Below, piece by piece: positions 6,054 through 14,045 of a stretch of DNA of 64,000 nt. The stretch is from IMG/VR virus record IMGVR_UViG_3300013111_000325, positions 1 to 64,000 of that record; one strand, 5' to 3'. A program made the translations under genes and the position numbers. The notes beneath the pieces are model-generated. The model ran no database searches. It saw only the letters and a program-made list of their open reading frames with translations, and was not told the origin of the DNA. The stretch comes from a virus. Each line of letters starts with the position of its first letter. The stretch's first letter is position 1.

Positions 6054-6065
6054 TTATGAGGTTTG

Positions 6066-6506
6066 ATGAAATTAGAAGAAATACAAGAATCATGGTCCAG
6101 TGACAGTCAAATTGATGATACAGAATTAGATAATGAATCTCTCAAAATTCCTGAATTACATCACAAATATTTTAGAATATTTTCAGATGAAAAACTCAAA
6201 CTTGTGCGAATGTATTCAAAGCAAAAAGAGTTACGCAGACTAAAATGGTTGTATTACACAGGAAAACTTGATCAAGAAACACTAGAAAATTTAGAATGGC
6301 ATGTGTTTGAACTTGACATAAAAAAGAACCGAAGTGATTTAGAAATGTTTATAGAATCCGACAAAGATATTCTAGAATTAGTAGAAAAAATATCATATCA
6401 AAAAGAAAAAATAGATTATTTAGAATCAATTATTAAAACATTAAATACACGAGGGTTTCAAATTAAGAACGCAATTGATTGGAAACGCTTTACTATGGGG
6501 ACTTGA
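6066..6506 (+). CDS. uvsY: Recombination mediator UvsY
   Basis: 146 residues (T4: 137). UvsY loads the UvsX recombinase on gp32-coated single strands. The N-terminus MKLEEIQESW parallels T4 MRLEDLQEE, and the C-terminus KTLNTRGFQIKNAIDW matches T4 KSRGFAIKHIQDM. The rest is charged and helical. The ATG at 6066 was chosen over the TTG codon before it because GAGG lies 4 nt upstream. In T4, uvsY and uvsW are also neighbours; here one glycosyltransferase gene separates them. Confidence 0.85.
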   Translation: MKLEEIQESWSSDSQIDDTELDNESLKIPELHHKYFRIFSDEKLKLVRMYSKQKELRRLKWLYYTGKLDQETLENLEWHVFELDIKKNRSDLEMFIESDKDILELVEKISYQKEKIDYLESIIKTLNTRGFQIKNAIDWKRFTMGT

Positions 6507-7550
6507 ATGTATGATATATTGATAATGACAGGATCATCATTAGATCCTGCTGATGGTGGTACAATGGGTGGTACTGAAAGACAAATTCTTTCCGTTGCCG
6601 AATCATTGGCACACGAAGGTTTAGATGTTGCAATAGTACATTCTATTACAGATGGTACTGATAAAGTTATTAATGGAGTAAAACATTTGAATACCTATAG
6701 ACATTATTATGATTATTCTAAAGTAAGATTGATGGCAAATCATTTTGGATATTCTGGTAATTTTCACAGAAACTATACTATGAGTAATGTTCATGTACCT
6801 CCAATGTCACCTATTGAAATGAATTGTGCAGAAAAAACATATTGTTGGTTTCACAACTGGTTTCATCTTTCTAATAATGATTATCCTAGAATTTTTAATT
6901 CTAAAGCGGTAGCAAAATATGTTTATGAACAAAATCCTTTTAGTCACATGGTAAAAAAATTACCTGATGATAAAGTAATTTACTATATGATTCCTAAAGG
7001 ACTAGTCGTACAGCCACAAGAAAAAAGACAGGATTATTTGTTCTGGATGAGTGCTTTCGGTAAAGGCATGAAAGAAGCAATTTTAATGTATATTTCTTTG
7101 TTTGAGAGAGGCTTGACTAAAAGACCTTTCCACATTGCAATACCACCGCAAAGAGACAGAAAAGATGTAGAAGTAGTAGAAAAAATGTTAATAGATGTGA
7201 ATAAGAATGGATATCCTATAAGATTTTTTGGTGAGATGAAGTATGCTGATGCATTGACTAAATTAAGTAAAGCCGCCTGTCTTTTTCGACCTGGATTACC
7301 TCAAGAGACATTTGGACTTGTTTACTTAGAAGCAAATCAATTAGGTGTTCCTGTTCTCACATATAAGGGTGATGCAGGAGAAGAAATTTTACAAGATAAA
7401 CACAATATGTTAATAGATAAACATCACAAACTACAAGACATATCGAACTGGTTAATAGATATAGACGAGCAAAAAACAACAGTAGACATGAGCAAATTTG
7501 ATCCAGATAGAATAAAGAAACAGTGGATTAAATTGATAGAAAATGCATAA
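6507..7550 (+). CDS. GT4-type glycosyltransferase
   Basis: 347 residues with a GT-B arrangement. The N-terminal GGTMGGTERQILSVAESL is the donor/acceptor loop and first helix typical of family GT4. The C-terminal half has FRPGLPQETFGLVYLEANQL with the conserved E-x7-E pattern, then GVPVLTYKGDAGEEIL. It begins directly after the uvsY stop and its stop overlaps the uvsW ATG (TAATG). It probably modifies a surface or virion glycan; the substrate is unknown. No other evidence of DNA glucosylation is seen here. Confidence 0.8.
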   Translation: MYDILIMTGSSLDPADGGTMGGTERQILSVAESLAHEGLDVAIVHSITDGTDKVINGVKHLNTYRHYYDYSKVRLMANHFGYSGNFHRNYTMSNVHVPPMSPIEMNCAEKTYCWFHNWFHLSNNDYPRIFNSKAVAKYVYEQNPFSHMVKKLPDDKVIYYMIPKGLVVQPQEKRQDYLFWMSAFGKGMKEAILMYISLFERGLTKRPFHIAIPPQRDRKDVEVVEKMLIDVNKNGYPIRFFGEMKYADALTKLSKAACLFRPGLPQETFGLVYLEANQLGVPVLTYKGDAGEEILQDKHNMLIDKHHKLQDISNWLIDIDEQKTTVDMSKFDPDRIKKQWIKLIENA

Positions 7551-9430
7551 TGCTATACGAACATGATACACTGCTCATAGACAAAAAGAATGAAGTGTTC
7601 ATGACGGTGCAAGCCGAACCTGGACTCGCAAGAGAATTGAGTGATTTTTTTACATTCTTTGTTCCAGGATATCGTTTCATGCCATCATATCGAAATAAGA
7701 TATGGGATGGTAAGATACGACTTTATAATCTACAAAACAAGTATCTTTATAGTGGTCTCATAGACTATGTTGAGAAGTTTGCTTCAGAACGTGAATATAA
7801 GATAGACTACAAAACAAATCCAAAAAACGTAAATGGTTATAATGAGAATGACTATGAAAGACTTGTGCGTTCTCTCAATCTTGAAATAGAACCACGAGAT
7901 TATCAGAGAGATGCATTTCTACATTCAATCAATAATGAACGTGCATTGCTACTCTCACCAACCGCATCTGGTAAATCTCTTATCATATATTTGTTGCTAC
8001 GGCACTATCAAATGAGATTGACAAATTTTAAGGCAATTGTTATAGTACCTACTACATCTCTCGTGGCACAGATGAATTCTGATTTTGCAGACTATGCAAA
8101 GAAAGATCGTTGGAAAGTTGCAGAAAATACACACATGATTTATTCAGGTCATGATAAAGTATCTGACAAACCTATATTCATATCAACTTGGCAATCACTT
8201 TATAAAATGCCTCTCAGTTATTTTTCAGATTTTGATGTAATTATAGGAGATGAATGTTTATCACCTGATACTGATATTATAATGAAAGACGGATCGTTTA
8301 AAAAAATAAAAGATATTTGTGTTGGTGATTATGTAAAAACATACAATGAAATATCAAAAGAAATAGAAAACAAACCTGTATTGAAAGTCCATAAAAATAT
8401 ATCAATAAAAGAAAAAATGTATGAAATAACATTGGATGGAATTAATAAAATTCAAATTACAGGTAATCATAAAGTCCTATTAACCAATGGAGTATGGAAA
8501 CGGGCTGATAGTCTTAAAATAGGAGATCGTATAAAAGGTTCAATAGTTACCTCAATAGTAGAATGTGCTCCTACTGATGAAGTCTATAATTTACACATTG
8601 AAGATAATCACAACTATTTCGCTAATGGTATTGTAGTATCAAATTGTCACCAATTTAAAGCGAAATCTCTGACTGCAATTATGGAGAAGGCGGTCAATAC
8701 CAAATATCGTTTTGGTACAACTGGAACACTTGACGGCACACAAATACACCGTCTTGCATTGGAAGGATTATTTGGACCTGTTTATAAAGTCACGACAACA
8801 AAGAAACTGATTGACAACAAGACACTATCACAGTTTGAGATCAAAGCATTGGTCCTGCAATATTCAGATGAGACATGTAAAGCACTCAAAGGAGCAAATT
8901 ATCAAGAAGAAATAGATTTTCTTGTATCAAATGAGAAACGAAACAACTTTATACGCAATTTAGCACTCAGTCTAAATACTAATACATTGATATTATTTCA
9001 ACTGGTTGAGAAACACGGTAGAATTCTATATAAGTTAATTAAGGATAAAACGAATGAACGACCAGTCTTTTTCGTCTATGGAGGAACCGACACAAACGAC
9101 CGAGAGCAAATTAGAGGAATCGTTGAACGAGAGTCCAATGCCATTATTGTTGCGAGTTACGGCACTTTTTCTACTGGCATCAATATTACTAATCTTCATA
9201 ATGTCATTTTTGCTTCCCCATCTAAATCTCGCATAAGAAATTTACAAAGTATAGGAAGAGGATTGAGAAAGAATGAACAAAAAAATATTGCGATATTATA
9301 TGATGTTGCCGATGATCTATCTTATAAGTCTCATAAAAACTACACTCTTAACCATTTCATTGAACGTATCAAAATATATAATGAAGAACAATTTGAATAC
9401 AAAATTCTTACAATACCAATCGGAGAATGA
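7550..9430 (+). CDS. uvsW: UvsW recombination helicase, interrupted by a mini-intein
   Basis: 626 codons: N-extein residues 1-235, intein 236-365, C-extein 366-626. The spliced 496-residue helicase is close to T4 UvsW. It is a 3'-5' superfamily 2 helicase that migrates branches and unwinds R-loops, helping move T4 from origin to recombination-dependent replication. Motifs: SPTASGKS (Walker A), the DECH box split by the intein, GTTGTLDG (motif III region) and QSIGRGLRKN (motif VI). Without splicing the DECH box is broken, so activity should depend on it. A downstream gene starts 1 nt after the stop. Confidence 0.93.
   Translation: MLYEHDTLLIDKKNEVFMTVQAEPGLARELSDFFTFFVPGYRFMPSYRNKIWDGKIRLYNLQNKYLYSGLIDYVEKFASEREYKIDYKTNPKNVNGYNENDYERLVRSLNLEIEPRDYQRDAFLHSINNERALLLSPTASGKSLIIYLLLRHYQMRLTNFKAIVIVPTTSLVAQMNSDFADYAKKDRWKVAENTHMIYSGHDKVSDKPIFISTWQSLYKMPLSYFSDFDVIIGDECLSPDTDIIMKDGSFKKIKDICVGDYVKTYNEISKEIENKPVLKVHKNISIKEKMYEITLDGINKIQITGNHKVLLTNGVWKRADSLKIGDRIKGSIVTSIVECAPTDEVYNLHIEDNHNYFANGIVVSNCHQFKAKSLTAIMEKAVNTKYRFGTTGTLDGTQIHRLALEGLFGPVYKVTTTKKLIDNKTLSQFEIKALVLQYSDETCKALKGANYQEEIDFLVSNEKRNNFIRNLALSLNTNTLILFQLVEKHGRILYKLIKDKTNERPVFFVYGGTDTNDREQIRGIVERESNAIIVASYGTFSTGINITNLHNVIFASPSKSRIRNLQSIGRGLRKNEQKNIAILYDVADDLSYKSHKNYTLNHFIERIKIYNEEQFEYKILTIPIGE
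8255..8644 (+). mobile_element. Mini-intein (130 residues) in the DECH box of UvsW
   Basis: Begins with Cys1 (CLSPDTDIIMKDGSFKKIKD, block A) and has a block B TGNH (T-x-x-H). The end YNLHIEDNHNYFANGIVVSN is blocks F/G, with Cys as the first C-extein residue. Removing it rebuilds GDE-CHQF, the DECH helicase box. There is no homing endonuclease domain, so it is a splicing-only Hint domain near the minimum known size. The penultimate residue is Ser instead of the usual His. Boundaries are exact if standard Cys/Asn-Cys chemistry applies. Confidence 0.92.
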
Positions 9431-9871: not shown

Positions 9872-10426
9872 ATGGCTAAAACAAGACACTACGTAAACAA
9901 TGCAGATTTTTTAGAAGCCCTTATTAAATATAAAGCGGACATTGAAATTGCAGAAAAAAATGAAGAAGAGAAGCCTCTACTACCTGATTATATTGGAGAG
10001 TGTTTTCTATTAATAGCACAACGATTATCTTACAGACCAAACTTCATCAACTATGTATTTAAGGATGATATGATATCCGATGGCATAGAAAATTGTTTAC
10101 AGTATGTGCATAATTTTAATCCTGAAAAGTCACAAAATCCTTTTGCATATTTTACACAGATAATTTATTATGCCTTTATTCGTAGAATTCAAAAAGAGAA
10201 AAAACATTTGTATGTGAAGTATAAAGAGATGGAGCGAATGCACTATCTTGAAGATAATGTTGAACATGGACAATATGATACCTCAGGAGAACTCATGACA
10301 GAGGTTGCATCTAATGACATGAGAATAATGATAGGTGATTTTATTGCTGAATTTGAACAGAAAAAAGCGGCCAAAAGAAAACCTAGAAAAAATGTTGCAG
10401 AATATGCAGGAATATACTCTATATAG
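9872..10426 (+). CDS. 55: Late-transcription sigma factor, T4 gp55 family
   Basis: 184 residues (T4: 185). It directs host RNA polymerase to TATAAATA late promoters. Characteristic blocks are the N-terminal KTRHYVNNADFLEALIKYK, the central LLIAQRLSYRPNFINY, then sigma region 2-like DGIENCLQYVHNFNPEK and NPFAYFTQIIYYAFIRRI. It is preceded by its own sigma70-type promoter with operator-like repeats, so its timing may be under specific control. The presence of TATAAATA boxes elsewhere in the window agrees with its role. Confidence 0.92.
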   Translation: MAKTRHYVNNADFLEALIKYKADIEIAEKNEEEKPLLPDYIGECFLLIAQRLSYRPNFINYVFKDDMISDGIENCLQYVHNFNPEKSQNPFAYFTQIIYYAFIRRIQKEKKHLYVKYKEMERMHYLEDNVEHGQYDTSGELMTEVASNDMRIMIGDFIAEFEQKKAAKRKPRKNVAEYAGIYSI

Positions 10427-10454
10427 AACTTCTCTTGTGAGAGTATTAGGAGAA

Positions 10455-10901
10455 ATGAAAATAGCACACATTTATATAGGTGAAGGTCTTCCTAAAAAAG
10501 AAGTTCAATCTGCTACTTTAACAACTACGGGTTTTGTTGGAGATAAGCAACGATGGAAAAGACATGGGCCTCCTTTGCGAGATATTGTAATATGGAGTTT
10601 AACTCGTATTGAAGAATTAATGAATGAGGGACATCCTATTTTTCCTGGCGCATGTGGGGAAAATTTAGTTATTGAAGGAAAGGAATATTTTAAATTGAAA
10701 AAGGATGATATTTTAACCATAGGAGATTCTATATTAAAACTAACTTTTCCTGCCGATCCTTGTAATCAAATTAAAGAATTTTTTACTTCTAATATGAATC
10801 TGGTGCATGATAAAATACCTAGATGGTGTTGTGATGTACTTTATGCAGATGAAAAAGAGATGTGTGTAAATGATCAAATAACACTACTTCATAAAAAATG
10901 A
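10455..10901 (+). CDS. MOSC domain protein
   Basis: 148 residues. The frame is open further upstream within gene 55, but ATG 10455 with TAGGAG before it is the likely start. Conserved MOSC features are TTTGFVGDKQ, the signature FPGACGENLVIEG, and a conserved Cys in ADPCNQI, as in YiiM-type proteins. MOSC domains bind sulfur or molybdenum cofactor and transfer sulfur or detoxify N-hydroxylated bases. Which of these applies is unknown. It is inserted between gp55 and gp47. Confidence 0.8.
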   Translation: MKIAHIYIGEGLPKKEVQSATLTTTGFVGDKQRWKRHGPPLRDIVIWSLTRIEELMNEGHPIFPGACGENLVIEGKEYFKLKKDDILTIGDSILKLTFPADPCNQIKEFFTSNMNLVHDKIPRWCCDVLYADEKEMCVNDQITLLHKK

Positions 10902-10908
10902 AAATAAT

Positions 10909-11988
10909 ATGAAAATAGCATTAATTACGGATACCCACTGGGGTGCTAGGAATGACAATAAAATATTTGCTGATTATTTTTCTAGATTTTATGACAATAT
11001 ATTTTTTCCTTATATCGATGACCATAATATTAAAACATGCATACATTTAGGTGATGTCGTTGATAGAAGAAAATACATTAACTTTAAGACCGCAAATGAT
11101 TTGAGAGAAAATTTTGTAGAACGATTATGGGAGATGAATGTTGACACACATATGATTGTCGGCAATCATGATATCTACTACAAGAATACAAATCAGGTCA
11201 ATTCTCTTCATGAACTTTTTAGCACCGCAGATCATATTCTTGAACCTTGGATCTATGCAAGCCCACGAGAATTTGATTTTGATGGTACTAAAATTCTCAT
11301 GATGCCGTGGATTAATTCAGATAATTATACAGAATGCATGGAAGCAATCAATAATTCTTCTGCACAAATTATGATGGGACATCTTGAAATCAATGGTTTT
11401 GAGATGCATCAACATGGTCAAATATGTGATGCAGGTTTTAGTGCAGACATGTTTTCTAAATTTGATTTAGTTTACAGTGGGCATTTTCATCACAAATCTA
11501 CACAAGGTGGTATCACATATCTTGGTAATCCTTATGAAATAACTTGGTCTGATTTTGGAGATGCAAGAGGTTTTCATGTGTTTGATACGAATACACGAGA
11601 ACTGGAATTTATACAAAATCCGTATCACATGTTTTATAAGATTTATTACGATGATAACAAAGAAACATTTGAGACTATTAAAGAAAGAGATTACGGTATT
11701 TACACAGGAACAATTGTTAAGGTTATTGTTACTGAAAAGAACAATCCGTATTGGTTTGACACAATGCTTGATGAGTTATACAAAGCGGATGTCGCAGATG
11801 TTTCTGTGGTTGAGAATGTTGATCTTGAATTTGAAAATGATGAATCTGTAGTTGATGAAGCCGAAGATACTTTGACTATTTTGAGTAATTACATTGATGG
11901 TTTGAATATTCAAAAGAATAAAAAAGAACTTGACAATCTTATAAGAACACTTTACAATGAGGCATTGGACTATGAAATCACAGCCTGA
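10909..11988 (+). CDS. 47: Recombination endonuclease subunit gp47 (Mre11-like)
   Basis: 359 residues (T4: 339). Metallophosphoesterase motifs occur in the family order: TDTHWGARNDN (DxH), LGDVVDRR (GDxxDR), VGNHDIYY (GNHD), MGHLEING and YSGHFHHKS (GHxH). With gp46 it forms the nuclease that resects DNA ends for recombination-dependent replication and host DNA breakdown. Its 3' end overlaps a small ORF, and gp46 follows two small genes later. Confidence 0.95.
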   Translation: MKIALITDTHWGARNDNKIFADYFSRFYDNIFFPYIDDHNIKTCIHLGDVVDRRKYINFKTANDLRENFVERLWEMNVDTHMIVGNHDIYYKNTNQVNSLHELFSTADHILEPWIYASPREFDFDGTKILMMPWINSDNYTECMEAINNSSAQIMMGHLEINGFEMHQHGQICDAGFSADMFSKFDLVYSGHFHHKSTQGGITYLGNPYEITWSDFGDARGFHVFDTNTRELEFIQNPYHMFYKIYYDDNKETFETIKERDYGIYTGTIVKVIVTEKNNPYWFDTMLDELYKADVADVSVVENVDLEFENDESVVDEAEDTLTILSNYIDGLNIQKNKKELDNLIRTLYNEALDYEITA

Positions 11989-12178
11989 AGAAGAAATGGA
12001 AACTATTACTTTGGATATATCCGATGATGTATTTATGAAACTCGCCATGCAAGCACATGAGAGAGATGTGACACTCAATACGCATATTATTGATGTGTTA
12101 AAAGATAAATTGAAAGATTTGGATTATCAATTTGAGAATGGAACAAAACCTCAACTCCTTACTGAAAAACAAACTTGA
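11972..12178 (+). CDS. Small protein, possible ribbon-helix-helix
   Basis: 68 residues from the ATG at 11972, overlapping the end of gene 47 by 17 nt; GAGG lies 10 nt upstream. A later ATG at 11996 would give METITLDISDDVF. The pattern ITLDISDDVFMKLAMQAHER followed by TLNTHIIDVLKDKLKD looks like a strand-helix-helix protein of the Arc/MetJ type. It sits between genes 47 and 46, where T4 also has small ORFs. A regulatory role is only a guess. Confidence 0.55.
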   Translation: MKSQPEEEMETITLDISDDVFMKLAMQAHERDVTLNTHIIDVLKDKLKDLDYQFENGTKPQLLTEKQT

Positions 12179-12326
12179 TGAATTAGAGGTTCTTGAAAAA
12201 GAACTGCATGATTGCAAATCAGTAGTTAAAGGTAAAATGCATATGCGAGATATCGTAAGTGGATATGTATATTCTAAAAAATCAGAAATTATTGAGATAT
12301 TGAAATCTAATTATGATAAACTTTAA
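12138..12326 (+). CDS. Small coiled-coil hypothetical protein
   Basis: 62 residues from ATG 12138, overlapping the preceding ORF by 41 nt in another frame. It is Leu/Glu/Lys-rich and predicted helical (LLKNKLDELEVLEKELHD). It ends 6 nt before gene 46. I do not recognise it; the position corresponds to the small 46.1/46.2-type ORFs of T4, without claimed homology. Confidence 0.5.
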   Translation: MEQNLNSLLKNKLDELEVLEKELHDCKSVVKGKMHMRDIVSGYVYSKKSEIIEILKSNYDKL

Positions 12327-12332
12327 TAAGAT

Positions 12333-14045
12333 ATGATTTTATTTTCGCAGGTGAGATGGAAAAATCTGCTATCAACAGGTCAGGTTTTTACAGAGGTTGA
12401 TCTAAAAAGAAATCCAACAACTCTGATTGTTGGTGAAAATGGTTCTGGAAAATCTACGATACTTGATGCACTCACATTCAGTCTGTTCGGTAAAGCATTT
12501 CGTAACATAAAAAAACCACAACTCATCAATTCAATTAATGAACAGAATTGTATTACTGAAGTAGAATTTTCTATAGGTAAAAAACATTTTCTTGTTCGTA
12601 GAGGTATCAGGCCAAATATTTTTGAGATTGAAGTTGATGGTGTCATGATAAATCAAGATTCTAAAGCCAGAGACTATCAAGAGCATCTTGAAAAAAATAT
12701 TCTCAAACTCAATTACAAATCTTTTACACAAATCGTAATACTTGGTAGTTCATCTTTTGTTCCTTTTATGCAATTGAGGACAAATGACCGCCGAGTAATT
12801 ATTGAAGACTTACTTGATATTGAGGTGTTTTCTACAATGAATTTACTTCTCAAAAATAGAGTATCAGAACTGAAGCAAGATATAAATCTCAATGAACTTG
12901 AAAGATCTAAAACTGAAAATGCGATAGAGTTACAAGAAGATTATATCTCAAAGATGAAGCAGAACAACATACAATTAATTTCTGCTAATCAAGAAAAAAT
13001 AGATAAGTCAAATAAAGATATTGCAACATATAATTTACAGATTGCAGATATCGAAACACGGATAGAAGCATTGTATAAACTGGTCGAAGATTTCGACCAG
13101 CAACAAAATAAGCAGAGAACGTTAGAAAAATATGAAGATGATATAAACAAAAACCTCAAAAAGGTAGAAAAAGAAATAGAATTCTATCGTCAAAATACAG
13201 ATTGTCCAGTATGTAAACAGACAATTGATGAGGATCATAGAGAATGTGAAATAAAAGAAAAGCGAAAAAAGAAAACAGAACTTGATGATGCGGTTACAAA
13301 AATTGATGAAGAATTACAATTATCAATTAAGTTAATTCAGGAGATGACCGAAACACAAAAATCGATTACAGATTTTCAGAGTGAGATTACAAAACATAAT
13401 GCATCTATTTCCGCAATCAATCAGTACATACAAAAGGTCAATGAAGAGATACAGTCATTAAATGAGAAAGGTGCAGATGTCACAGATGCATCAAAGAAAC
13501 TCAAAAAATTAAAGACTGATCAAAAAAATCTCTTGTCATTGAAAGAGCAATATAGTAATATGTCTTCAATATATGACGTTGCGAGTGTGCTTCTCAAAGA
13601 CGGTGGCATCAAAACAACCATCATAAAAAAATACTTGCCGATTATGAATAAATTAATTAACAAGTATTTGGCATCTATGGATTTTTATGTATCGTTTAAT
13701 CTCGATGAGAACTTTAACGAGACAATTAAATCTAGATTTCGTGATGAATTCACCTATGCATCATTTAGTGAAGGTGAAAAAATGAGAATCGACTTGGCCT
13801 TGCTTTTCACTTGGAGAGCAATTGCCAAGTTGAAAAATAGTATGAGTACGAATCTACTCGTTCTTGATGAAGTGTTTGATAGTTCATTGGATGAAGATGG
13901 TACAAGTGACTTTCTCAAAATACTTCATTCGCTTGGTAATGAATCGAATGTTTTTATAATTAGTCACAAGGGTGAAGTCTTGTACGACAAATTTAAAAGC
14001 ATGATTAAATTTGAAAAACATAAAAACTTTAGCAGGATAGTATGA
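12333..14045 (+). CDS. 46: Recombination endonuclease subunit gp46 (Rad50-like)
   Basis: 570 residues (T4: 560). An SMC/Rad50-type ATPase. Walker A GENGSGKST lies near residue 33, then long coiled coils flank a CPVC zinc hook (near residue 291), then the ABC signature SEGEKMRIDLAL and Walker B LLVLDEVFDSSLD. It partners gp47 in end resection. It overlaps the deformylase gene by 4 nt (ATGA). Confidence 0.96.
   Translation: MILFSQVRWKNLLSTGQVFTEVDLKRNPTTLIVGENGSGKSTILDALTFSLFGKAFRNIKKPQLINSINEQNCITEVEFSIGKKHFLVRRGIRPNIFEIEVDGVMINQDSKARDYQEHLEKNILKLNYKSFTQIVILGSSSFVPFMQLRTNDRRVIIEDLLDIEVFSTMNLLLKNRVSELKQDINLNELERSKTENAIELQEDYISKMKQNNIQLISANQEKIDKSNKDIATYNLQIADIETRIEALYKLVEDFDQQQNKQRTLEKYEDDINKNLKKVEKEIEFYRQNTDCPVCKQTIDEDHRECEIKEKRKKKTELDDAVTKIDEELQLSIKLIQEMTETQKSITDFQSEITKHNASISAINQYIQKVNEEIQSLNEKGADVTDASKKLKKLKTDQKNLLSLKEQYSNMSSIYDVASVLLKDGGIKTTIIKKYLPIMNKLINKYLASMDFYVSFNLDENFNETIKSRFRDEFTYASFSEGEKMRIDLALLFTWRAIAKLKNSMSTNLLVLDEVFDSSLDEDGTSDFLKILHSLGNESNVFIISHKGEVLYDKFKSMIKFEKHKNFSRIV

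What the first reader, a model, noticed from the sequence alone, without database searches (positions are those of the whole stretch)
8255..8644. 130-residue mini-intein splitting the DECH box of UvsW
The insertion sits exactly between DE and CH of helicase motif II, where the protein cannot work unless spliced. There is no endonuclease, the size is near the minimum known, and the penultimate residue is Ser (VVSN|C), not His. The helicase acts in the switch to recombination-dependent replication, so splicing conditions could gate it.
Basis: partly seen in the sequence, partly recalled or inferred. Interest (0 to 1): 0.62.

Follow-up and report, generated by a model that had tools for sequence, protein, structure and literature searches.

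The report
Re-fused split intein in phage helicase
A marine phage DNA-repair helicase carries a 130-residue self-splicing insert exactly in its active-site motif, and related phages show that this compact insert most likely arose when a two-gene split version lost its homing-endonuclease gene and the two halves joined again, a step rarely if ever documented.

Summary
Window 8255-8644 encodes a 130-aa class 1 mini-intein, in frame in UvsW (7550-9430), between DE and CH of helicase motif II. Pfam, NCBIfam and a confident AlphaFold model (pLDDT 95; Z 20 to solved inteins) agree. Small size and penultimate Ser are ordinary for this family.

Two things were missed. (1) The host site was DEAH, not DECH. 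A near-identical strain (L005) lacks the intein. All its differences from the window in 9.5 kb, bar one SNP private to the window, lie within 55 nt left and 255 nt right of the insertion, a conversion-tract footprint, and its motif is DEAH, as in 71 of 72 intein-free relatives. The insertion brought its own Cys+1. (2) At this site nearly all relatives are naturally SPLIT, with one family of putative homing-endonuclease (HE) genes between the halves. A decay series exists: HE intact, HE relic, HE gone, in-frame stops, contiguous. The window intein nests among split ones; its sister keeps an HE relic. Four contiguous forms arose separately (AU p=0.0004 against one clade), and two keep the fossil start Met of the C-half.

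Best reading: a re-fused split intein, spreading by recombination. Gating of UvsW is untested and unsupported.

The parts
7550..8254 (+). UvsW N-extein (235 aa), ending ..VIIGDE (first half of helicase motif II)
   Evidence: PF21241 UvsW_N, ResIII; continuous with the C-extein in intein-free homologues
8255..8644 (+). Contiguous class 1 mini-intein, 130 aa, Cys1 to Asn130, penultimate Ser129
   Evidence: PF14890 1e-14; TIGR01445; TIGR01443; AF2 model pLDDT 95, Z 20.1 to 4o1r
8255..8533 (+). Part matching the IntN half of split relatives (residues 1-93; Cys1 8255-8257; block B TGNH, residues 69-72, 8459-8470)
   Evidence: 57-63% identical to IntN of L088, L090, L092, L093
8534..8539 (+). Fusion junction region: K94-G95 aligns with the 'KG' of the IntC leader MVEKG.. 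/ MAEKG..; the IntN tail (INSIE) and the start of IntC are missing
   Evidence: Alignment A5; junction comparison
8540..8644 (+). Part matching the IntC half of split relatives (block F H119 8609-8611; VVSN end)
8645..9430 (+). UvsW C-extein (261 aa plus stop), beginning Cys+1 (TGT 8645-8647) His; Ala (GCA) stands at this place in intein-free relatives
8200..8254 (+). Left part of the conversion tract: 6 differences from L005, none in the 4,650 nt further left
8645..8899 (+). Right part of the conversion tract: 24 differences from L005 within +255; further right L005 differs only at +393 (private to the window) out to 4.78 kb

Best explanation
It is a cis-splicing class 1 mini-intein in motif II of UvsW. 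It most likely descends from a naturally split ('fractured') UvsW intein that had a homing-endonuclease gene between its halves. The HE gene decayed and was lost, and a deletion that removed the IntN tail, stop, HE remnant and IntC start put the halves back in one frame. Cys1 and Cys+1 act as nucleophiles and Asn130 cyclises, so the 626-aa precursor should yield a 496-aa UvsW with a DECH motif II. The insertion came with its own Cys+1 codon and flanking DNA and now passes between strains by homologous recombination. Shown by sequence: intein identity, site, empty alleles, conversion tract, DEAH/DECH difference, split relatives, HE decay series, tree position. Inferred: splicing activity, direction split to contiguous, need of splicing for activity.
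For: Intein; catalytic C1, T69-H72, H119, N130 and C+1 conserved. Split relatives at the same DE|CH site, HE ORF between halves; the ORFs form one homologous family in 27 of 28 loci, the exception lying at another site. HE and intein tree distances correlate (Mantel r 0.81, 0 of 2000 permutations), so split+HE is old. HE relics between the halves in L090 (the window's sister), L097, L101, L124, L134, L146 and L236. The window is sister to L090 with 99/90 and 100/88, inside a starred clade. Four contiguous forms need 4 fusions, against 12-21 parallel splits if contiguous were ancestral; AU rejects the four as one clade, p=0.0004. L235 and L245 carry the IntC start Met in frame inside a contiguous intein. 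L236 is in frame but has three stops at the junction. Tract and DEAH. Window UvsW sits in a starred 32-row clade whose other rows are all empty.
Against: AU tests on ~133 columns do not reject trees in which the window intein lies outside its four split relatives (p=0.42) or groups with contiguous L235 (p=0.42), so the window's own re-fusion rests on bootstrap support and parsimony. The window lacks the fossil Met that L235 and L245 have. A Met already present in a contiguous ancestor could have become the start codon on splitting. Splicing was not observed. Three intein-bearing records carry identical inteins, so selection on it cannot be measured.
Confidence: 0.77

Rival explanations
1. The window mini-intein is the ancestral contiguous form; the HE inserted into such inteins many times and split them in parallel.
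For: Naturally split inteins are generally held to derive from contiguous ones (PMC12707363). AU tests for the window taken alone are not decisive.
Against: Needs 12-21 independent splits at the same position by one HE family, against 4 fusions. HE and intein trees agree. The window's sister holds an HE relic.
Confidence: 0.18
2. The intein is a regulatory switch that withholds UvsW until splicing conditions occur, timing recombination-dependent replication.
For: The insertion is in the catalytic motif. Conditional splicing is known for a helicase intein (PMC6195587). The window intein has Cys22 and Cys104, absent from its closest relatives, which could allow redox effects.
Against: The strain L005, nearly identical around the gene, and all other members of the 32-row clade do without it. 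The family bears the marks of a mobile element. No test of conditionality was possible.
Confidence: 0.06
3. The L005/window pair reflects intein LOSS in L005 by recombination with an empty allele rather than gain in the window lineage.
For: The tract alone does not give direction: L005's tract is no closer to other empty strains than expected, nor is the window's.
Against: All other members of the 32-row UvsW clade are empty DEAH, so presence is the derived state in the clade. The same intein plus at least 135 nt and 372 nt of flank occurs in strain L004, which differs by 35 sites in the rest of the N-extein.
Confidence: 0.25
4. Assembly chimera: the intein was joined in from another strain by the assembler.
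For: Contigs L015 and L044 end exactly at the tract edges, as at an assembly bubble.
Against: The same 390 nt with intact junctions occurs in the window record, L003 and L004 from different metagenomes and in two strain backgrounds. The bubble is itself what two real alleles would cause.
Confidence: 0.02

Closest known systems
Fractured genes with split inteins and a free-standing HE between the halves (Dassa et al. 2009, NAR 37:2560; known here only from citations and memory, text not held)
   Same: The relatives at the same UvsW site have this arrangement: IntN gene, HE gene, IntC gene. The window intein belongs to the same sequence family (47-63% in the N half).
   Different: In the window the halves are one frame and the HE is gone; it is the reverse outcome.
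gp41-1 split intein (cyanophage-like, PDB 6qaz)
   Same: Class 1 Hint fold of similar minimal size; Z 17.9, rmsd 1.8.
   Different: gp41-1 is naturally split, in another helicase; 27% identity over the structural alignment.
DnaB mini-inteins (Npu 4o1r, Ssp 1mi8)
   Same: Closest solved folds (Z 20.1) and contiguous cis-splicing inteins in a helicase.
   Different: 29-31% identity; replicative helicase DnaB, another site; penultimate His rather than Ser in 4o1r (alignment).
Split UvsW of Salmonella phage S16 and Proteus phage PM2 (PHROG 16259 / 9690)
   Same: Same gene and same DE|CH site; N half 47% identical.
   Different: Two genes with a 291-aa HE-like ORF between, penultimate His, native DECH host site.
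Mycobacteriophage terminase inteins in Walker B (Kelley et al. 2016, PMC5050341)
   Same: Phage inteins in an ATPase motif, penultimate His often replaced by Gly, Lys or Ser.
   Different: Other protein family; many carry endonucleases; no split ancestry reported there.

Membership tests
Class 1 intein | N-terminal Cys/Ser nucleophile at position 1 | tested here: met
   Cys1 at 8255-8257
Class 1 intein | Block B TxxH | tested here: met
   T69-G-N-H72, invariant in the clade
Class 1 intein | C-terminal Asn followed by Cys/Ser/Thr+1 | tested here: met
   Asn130|Cys+1
Class 1 intein | Penultimate His (common, not universal) | tested here: not met
   Ser129; not a strict defining feature (PMC7664689, PMC5050341); block F H119 is present
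Class 1 intein | Hint fold and curated profile cut-offs | tested here: met
   PF14890, TIGR01445 and TIGR01443 above cut-off; Z 20.1 to 4o1r
Class 1 intein | Excision and ligation of exteins | not testable with these tools
   Needs expression and mass spectrometry
Mini-intein | Contiguous, no endonuclease domain | tested here: met
   One open frame of 626 aa; IntN directly joined to IntC
Fractured (split intein + HE) UvsW locus | IntN and IntC on separate genes | tested here: not met
   Contiguous in the window; split in most relatives
Fractured (split intein + HE) UvsW locus | HE gene between the halves | tested here: not met
   Absent in the window; no homologue of the HE found in the 116.9-kb record
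Fractured (split intein + HE) UvsW locus | Descent from a split ancestor | tested here: inconclusive
   Bootstrap and parsimony favour it; AU for the window alone does not exclude the alternative
EDxHD / Vsr-like homing endonucleases (for the HE of relatives) | Sequence similarity to a solved member | tested here: inconclusive
   Profile A6 matches no PDB chain at E<=1; only sub-threshold Pfam hits to TnsA-like N and DUF559

The most novel reading that the evidence does not exclude
Split-to-contiguous re-fusion is a recurrent natural route to mini-inteins: in phage UvsW the loss of the HE from fractured loci has let the halves rejoin at least four times, leaving fossil start codons, and the re-fused, HE-less intein still moves between strains by ordinary phage recombination, converting DEAH helicases to DECH.
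Probability: 0.68. Interest if true: 0.66.

Novelty: new variant of a known kind. Interest (0 to 1): 0.56.

Why it matters
Split inteins are thought to come from contiguous ones; the reverse was found in none of the papers searched. This locus and its relatives show each stage: split with HE, HE relic, HE gone, in-frame but with stops, contiguous with a fossil start codon, contiguous clean. That makes the direction of intein splitting testable with natural sequences, and gives matched cis/trans pairs for protein engineering. The L005/window pair shows at single-base resolution how an HE-less intein allele sits in a viral population, and how an intein that needs Cys+1 can enter a DEAH site by bringing the codon with it.

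Tried and rejected
Literature search for a UvsW split intein: 0 papers holding both terms; seven papers hold 'UvsW' and 'intein', and in the four read the inteins are in other genes. Dassa 2009 is not held. L112 and L117 first looked contiguous; reading frames showed they are split with overlapping ORFs. Endonuclease in trans in the same record: not found (the weak PF01844 hit at 65296, E 0.008, is below cut-off). HE family assignment through PDB: no match. Whole-precursor AlphaFold model gave the intein part low confidence (gaps in the alignment) and was not used. Direction of change in the L005/window pair from tract similarity: undecided. The genome-contig scan found one more contiguous DE|CH case, L287. 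Penultimate Ser as an oddity: rejected.

Full report
What is there. Window 7550-9430 (+) is one open frame of 626 aa. It is UvsW: PF21241 UvsW_N, ResIII and Helicase_C match above cut-off, and it lies next to UvsY (6063-6506), the late sigma factor (9872-10426) and the gp47/gp46-like SbcD/SbcC genes (10909-14045) of a T4-like marine myovirus. DNA relatives in the phage collection are Methylophilales, Pelagibacter and cyanobacterial T4-like phages. The record (G000) is an IMG/VR contig of 116,897 bases. Residues 236-365 (8255-8644) are an intein by Pfam and NCBIfam. It is the only one found in the record with PF14890. The model of the 130 aa has pLDDT 95 and pTM 0.86; its nearest solved folds are the Npu and Ssp DnaB inteins, Z 20.1, and gp41-1 gives Z 17.9. 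Cys1, TGNH (69-72), His119, Asn130 and Cys+1 are in place. Base composition differs from the exteins: G+C 27% and third-position G+C 15%, against 34% and 26-28%.

The site and the empty allele. Intein-free UvsW relatives in viral contigs are continuous across the junction. In 71 of 72 of them motif II is DEAH, not DECH. In the T4 clade (Straboviridae) the intein-free genes are DECH (27 loci, L168-L194 and L234). The best comparison is L005: window and L005 agree at every base for 4,650 nt left of -55. Right of +255 they differ only at +393 out to 4.78 kb, and there L003, which bears the intein, agrees with L005, so that change is private to the window. The other 30 differences (6 left, 24 right) lie within 55 nt left and 255 nt right of the insertion. 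The innermost 19 nt each side are 34% different, the rest of the tract about 6% (Fisher p 5e-6). The codon after the insertion is GCA (Ala) in L005 and TGT (Cys) in the window: all three bases differ. This is a recombination tract, such as homing or any homologous recombination of an insertion leaves. L004 carries the identical intein (0 of 390 differences) and identical flanks for at least 135 nt left and 372 nt right, but differs at 35 positions in the rest of its N-extein; so the allele has moved between strain backgrounds. Two further contigs end exactly at the tract edges (L015 at -56, L044 from +256), as expected if both alleles coexist in those samples. Tract similarity does not say whether L005 lost or the window gained it, but in the UvsW tree the window sits in a starred clade of 32 rows whose other 31 are empty, so the intein is a newcomer to that clade.

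The relatives are split. Two scans of viral contigs with intein alignments gave many inteins at the same DE|CH position in UvsW and other SF2-like helicases, and at the same VDE|CH motif in a further family of proteins (e.g. L097, L103, L104, L106). After removal of duplicates, 75 rows were used for a tree: 57 split with a full ORF between the halves, 14 split without a full ORF, 4 contiguous. Cultured phages show it too: Salmonella phage S16 and Proteus phage PM2 have UvsW N-half + IntN, a 291-aa ORF, and IntC + C-half as overlapping genes. PHROGs 16259 and 9690 are these halves, simply named 'DNA helicase'. The ORFs between the halves are one homologous family in 27 of 28 loci; the exception, L098, is at another site and of HNH type. 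They match Pfam only weakly (TnsA-like N, E 3e-4 to 5e-4, below cut-off) and no solved structure by sequence, so 'homing endonuclease' is an inference from position and from the NUMOD3-like hit. Distances between HE trees and intein trees agree (Mantel r 0.81, 0 of 2000 permutations, n 26): HE and split intein have travelled together for long.

A decay series. L090, the window's sister, keeps a broken HE relic (62.5% over 48 aa to the L093 HE; then a frame change). L134 is the L132 HE with its middle deleted. L097, L101, L124, L146 and L236 keep short HE pieces. L092, L112, L117, L240, L283 and L284 are split with no HE detected. L112 and L117 have overlapping halves. L236 has both halves in one frame but with three stop codons at the junction. 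Contiguous forms are the window (and L003, L004), L091, L235, L245/L247 and, from a MAG, L287. L235 reads ..EGDIIHK-MAQKGIKISEI.., where split L092 has ..EGDIINSIE* and MAEKGVKIISI... L245 reads ..DEILSLEDYF-MKIKSIKKIDY.., where split L264, L266 and L272 have IntC starting MKIKSI.... These look like start methionines of IntC caught inside a re-fused frame. The window lacks the Met; its K94-G95 aligns with the KG of MVEKG/MAEKG and the IntN tail is gone.

Direction. On the 75-row tree the contiguous rows stand apart. With a split root 4 fusions suffice; with a contiguous root at least 12-21 independent splits (over bootstrap trees) are needed, each with the same HE family at the same place. AU rejects the four contiguous rows as one clade (p 0.0004). 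For the window alone the data are weaker: it is sister to split L090 with 99/90 and 100/88, but AU does not reject excluding it from its four split relatives (p 0.42) or pairing it with L235 (p 0.42). I therefore put re-fusion of the window intein at about 0.77.

Mechanism. Established class 1 chemistry (N-S shift at Cys1, transesterification to Cys+1, Asn130 cyclisation) would release a 130-aa intein and a 496-aa UvsW with motif II DECH. That splicing happens is inferred, not shown. DECH is native in T4-clade UvsW, so the changed residue is tolerable. Ser before the final Asn is the rule in this family and reported for other phage inteins (PMC5050341); block F His119 can take the part of the penultimate His, as that paper discusses. 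Size is at the low end of typical (PMC12707363).

Regulation. Nothing here supports gating. A strain nearly identical around the gene lives without the intein. The precedent in mycobacterial DnaB (PMC6195587) shows that gating is possible in principle; Cys22 and Cys104 are private to the window intein among its four closest relatives, which is a lead only.

Novelty. Inteins in phage ATPase motifs, split inteins in fractured phage genes, and HE loss are all known kinds. The re-fusion of a fractured intein, repeated and with intermediates, I found described in none of the papers searched, but the key 2009 paper and most subscription papers are not held, so priority is not established.

Noticed in passing
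L083 2314-5040 (Salmonella phage S16) and L084 2314-5046 (Proteus phage PM2): UvsW of cultured T4-like phages is encoded as two genes with split intein halves and a 291-aa HE-like ORF overlapping both; the records annotate plain helicases and a hypothetical protein.
   Followed up: yes
L097, L103, L104, L106, L241-L244, L246, L248, L271: The same split intein and HE family sits at a VDE|CH motif of proteins without detectable UvsW similarity, so the family has moved between non-homologous ATPase genes with the same Walker B motif.
   Followed up: partly
L098 3001-4268: A related split intein lies in UvsW at another site (TGTLDGSE|CNEM) with an HNH-type ORF instead of the usual HE.
   Followed up: no
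L160-L162: A contiguous frame of 365 aa between LDE|C and SN|CH with a possible HE-related middle (weak hits, E 5e-4 to 2e-4): perhaps the HE translated inside an intein of the same family.
   Followed up: no
L077 3150-4598: The only intein-free UvsW with DECH in an otherwise DEAH clade; could be a footprint of past intein occupancy and loss, or a chance substitution.
   Followed up: partly
L085 (Campylobacter phage CP21) 3001-3399: A contiguous 133-aa intein at VDE|C of the terminase gene; the record annotates the pieces as separate terminase and hypothetical genes and leaves the intein without annotation.
   Followed up: no
G000 65296-65349: Sub-threshold HNH match (E 0.008) in a 74-aa open frame outside the window.
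   Followed up: no
window 6507-7547 and 10335-10898: Glycosyltransferase-like and MOSC-like proteins by eye; no PHROG match at 1e-5, in the recombination gene cluster between UvsY and UvsW and next to the late sigma factor.
   Followed up: no
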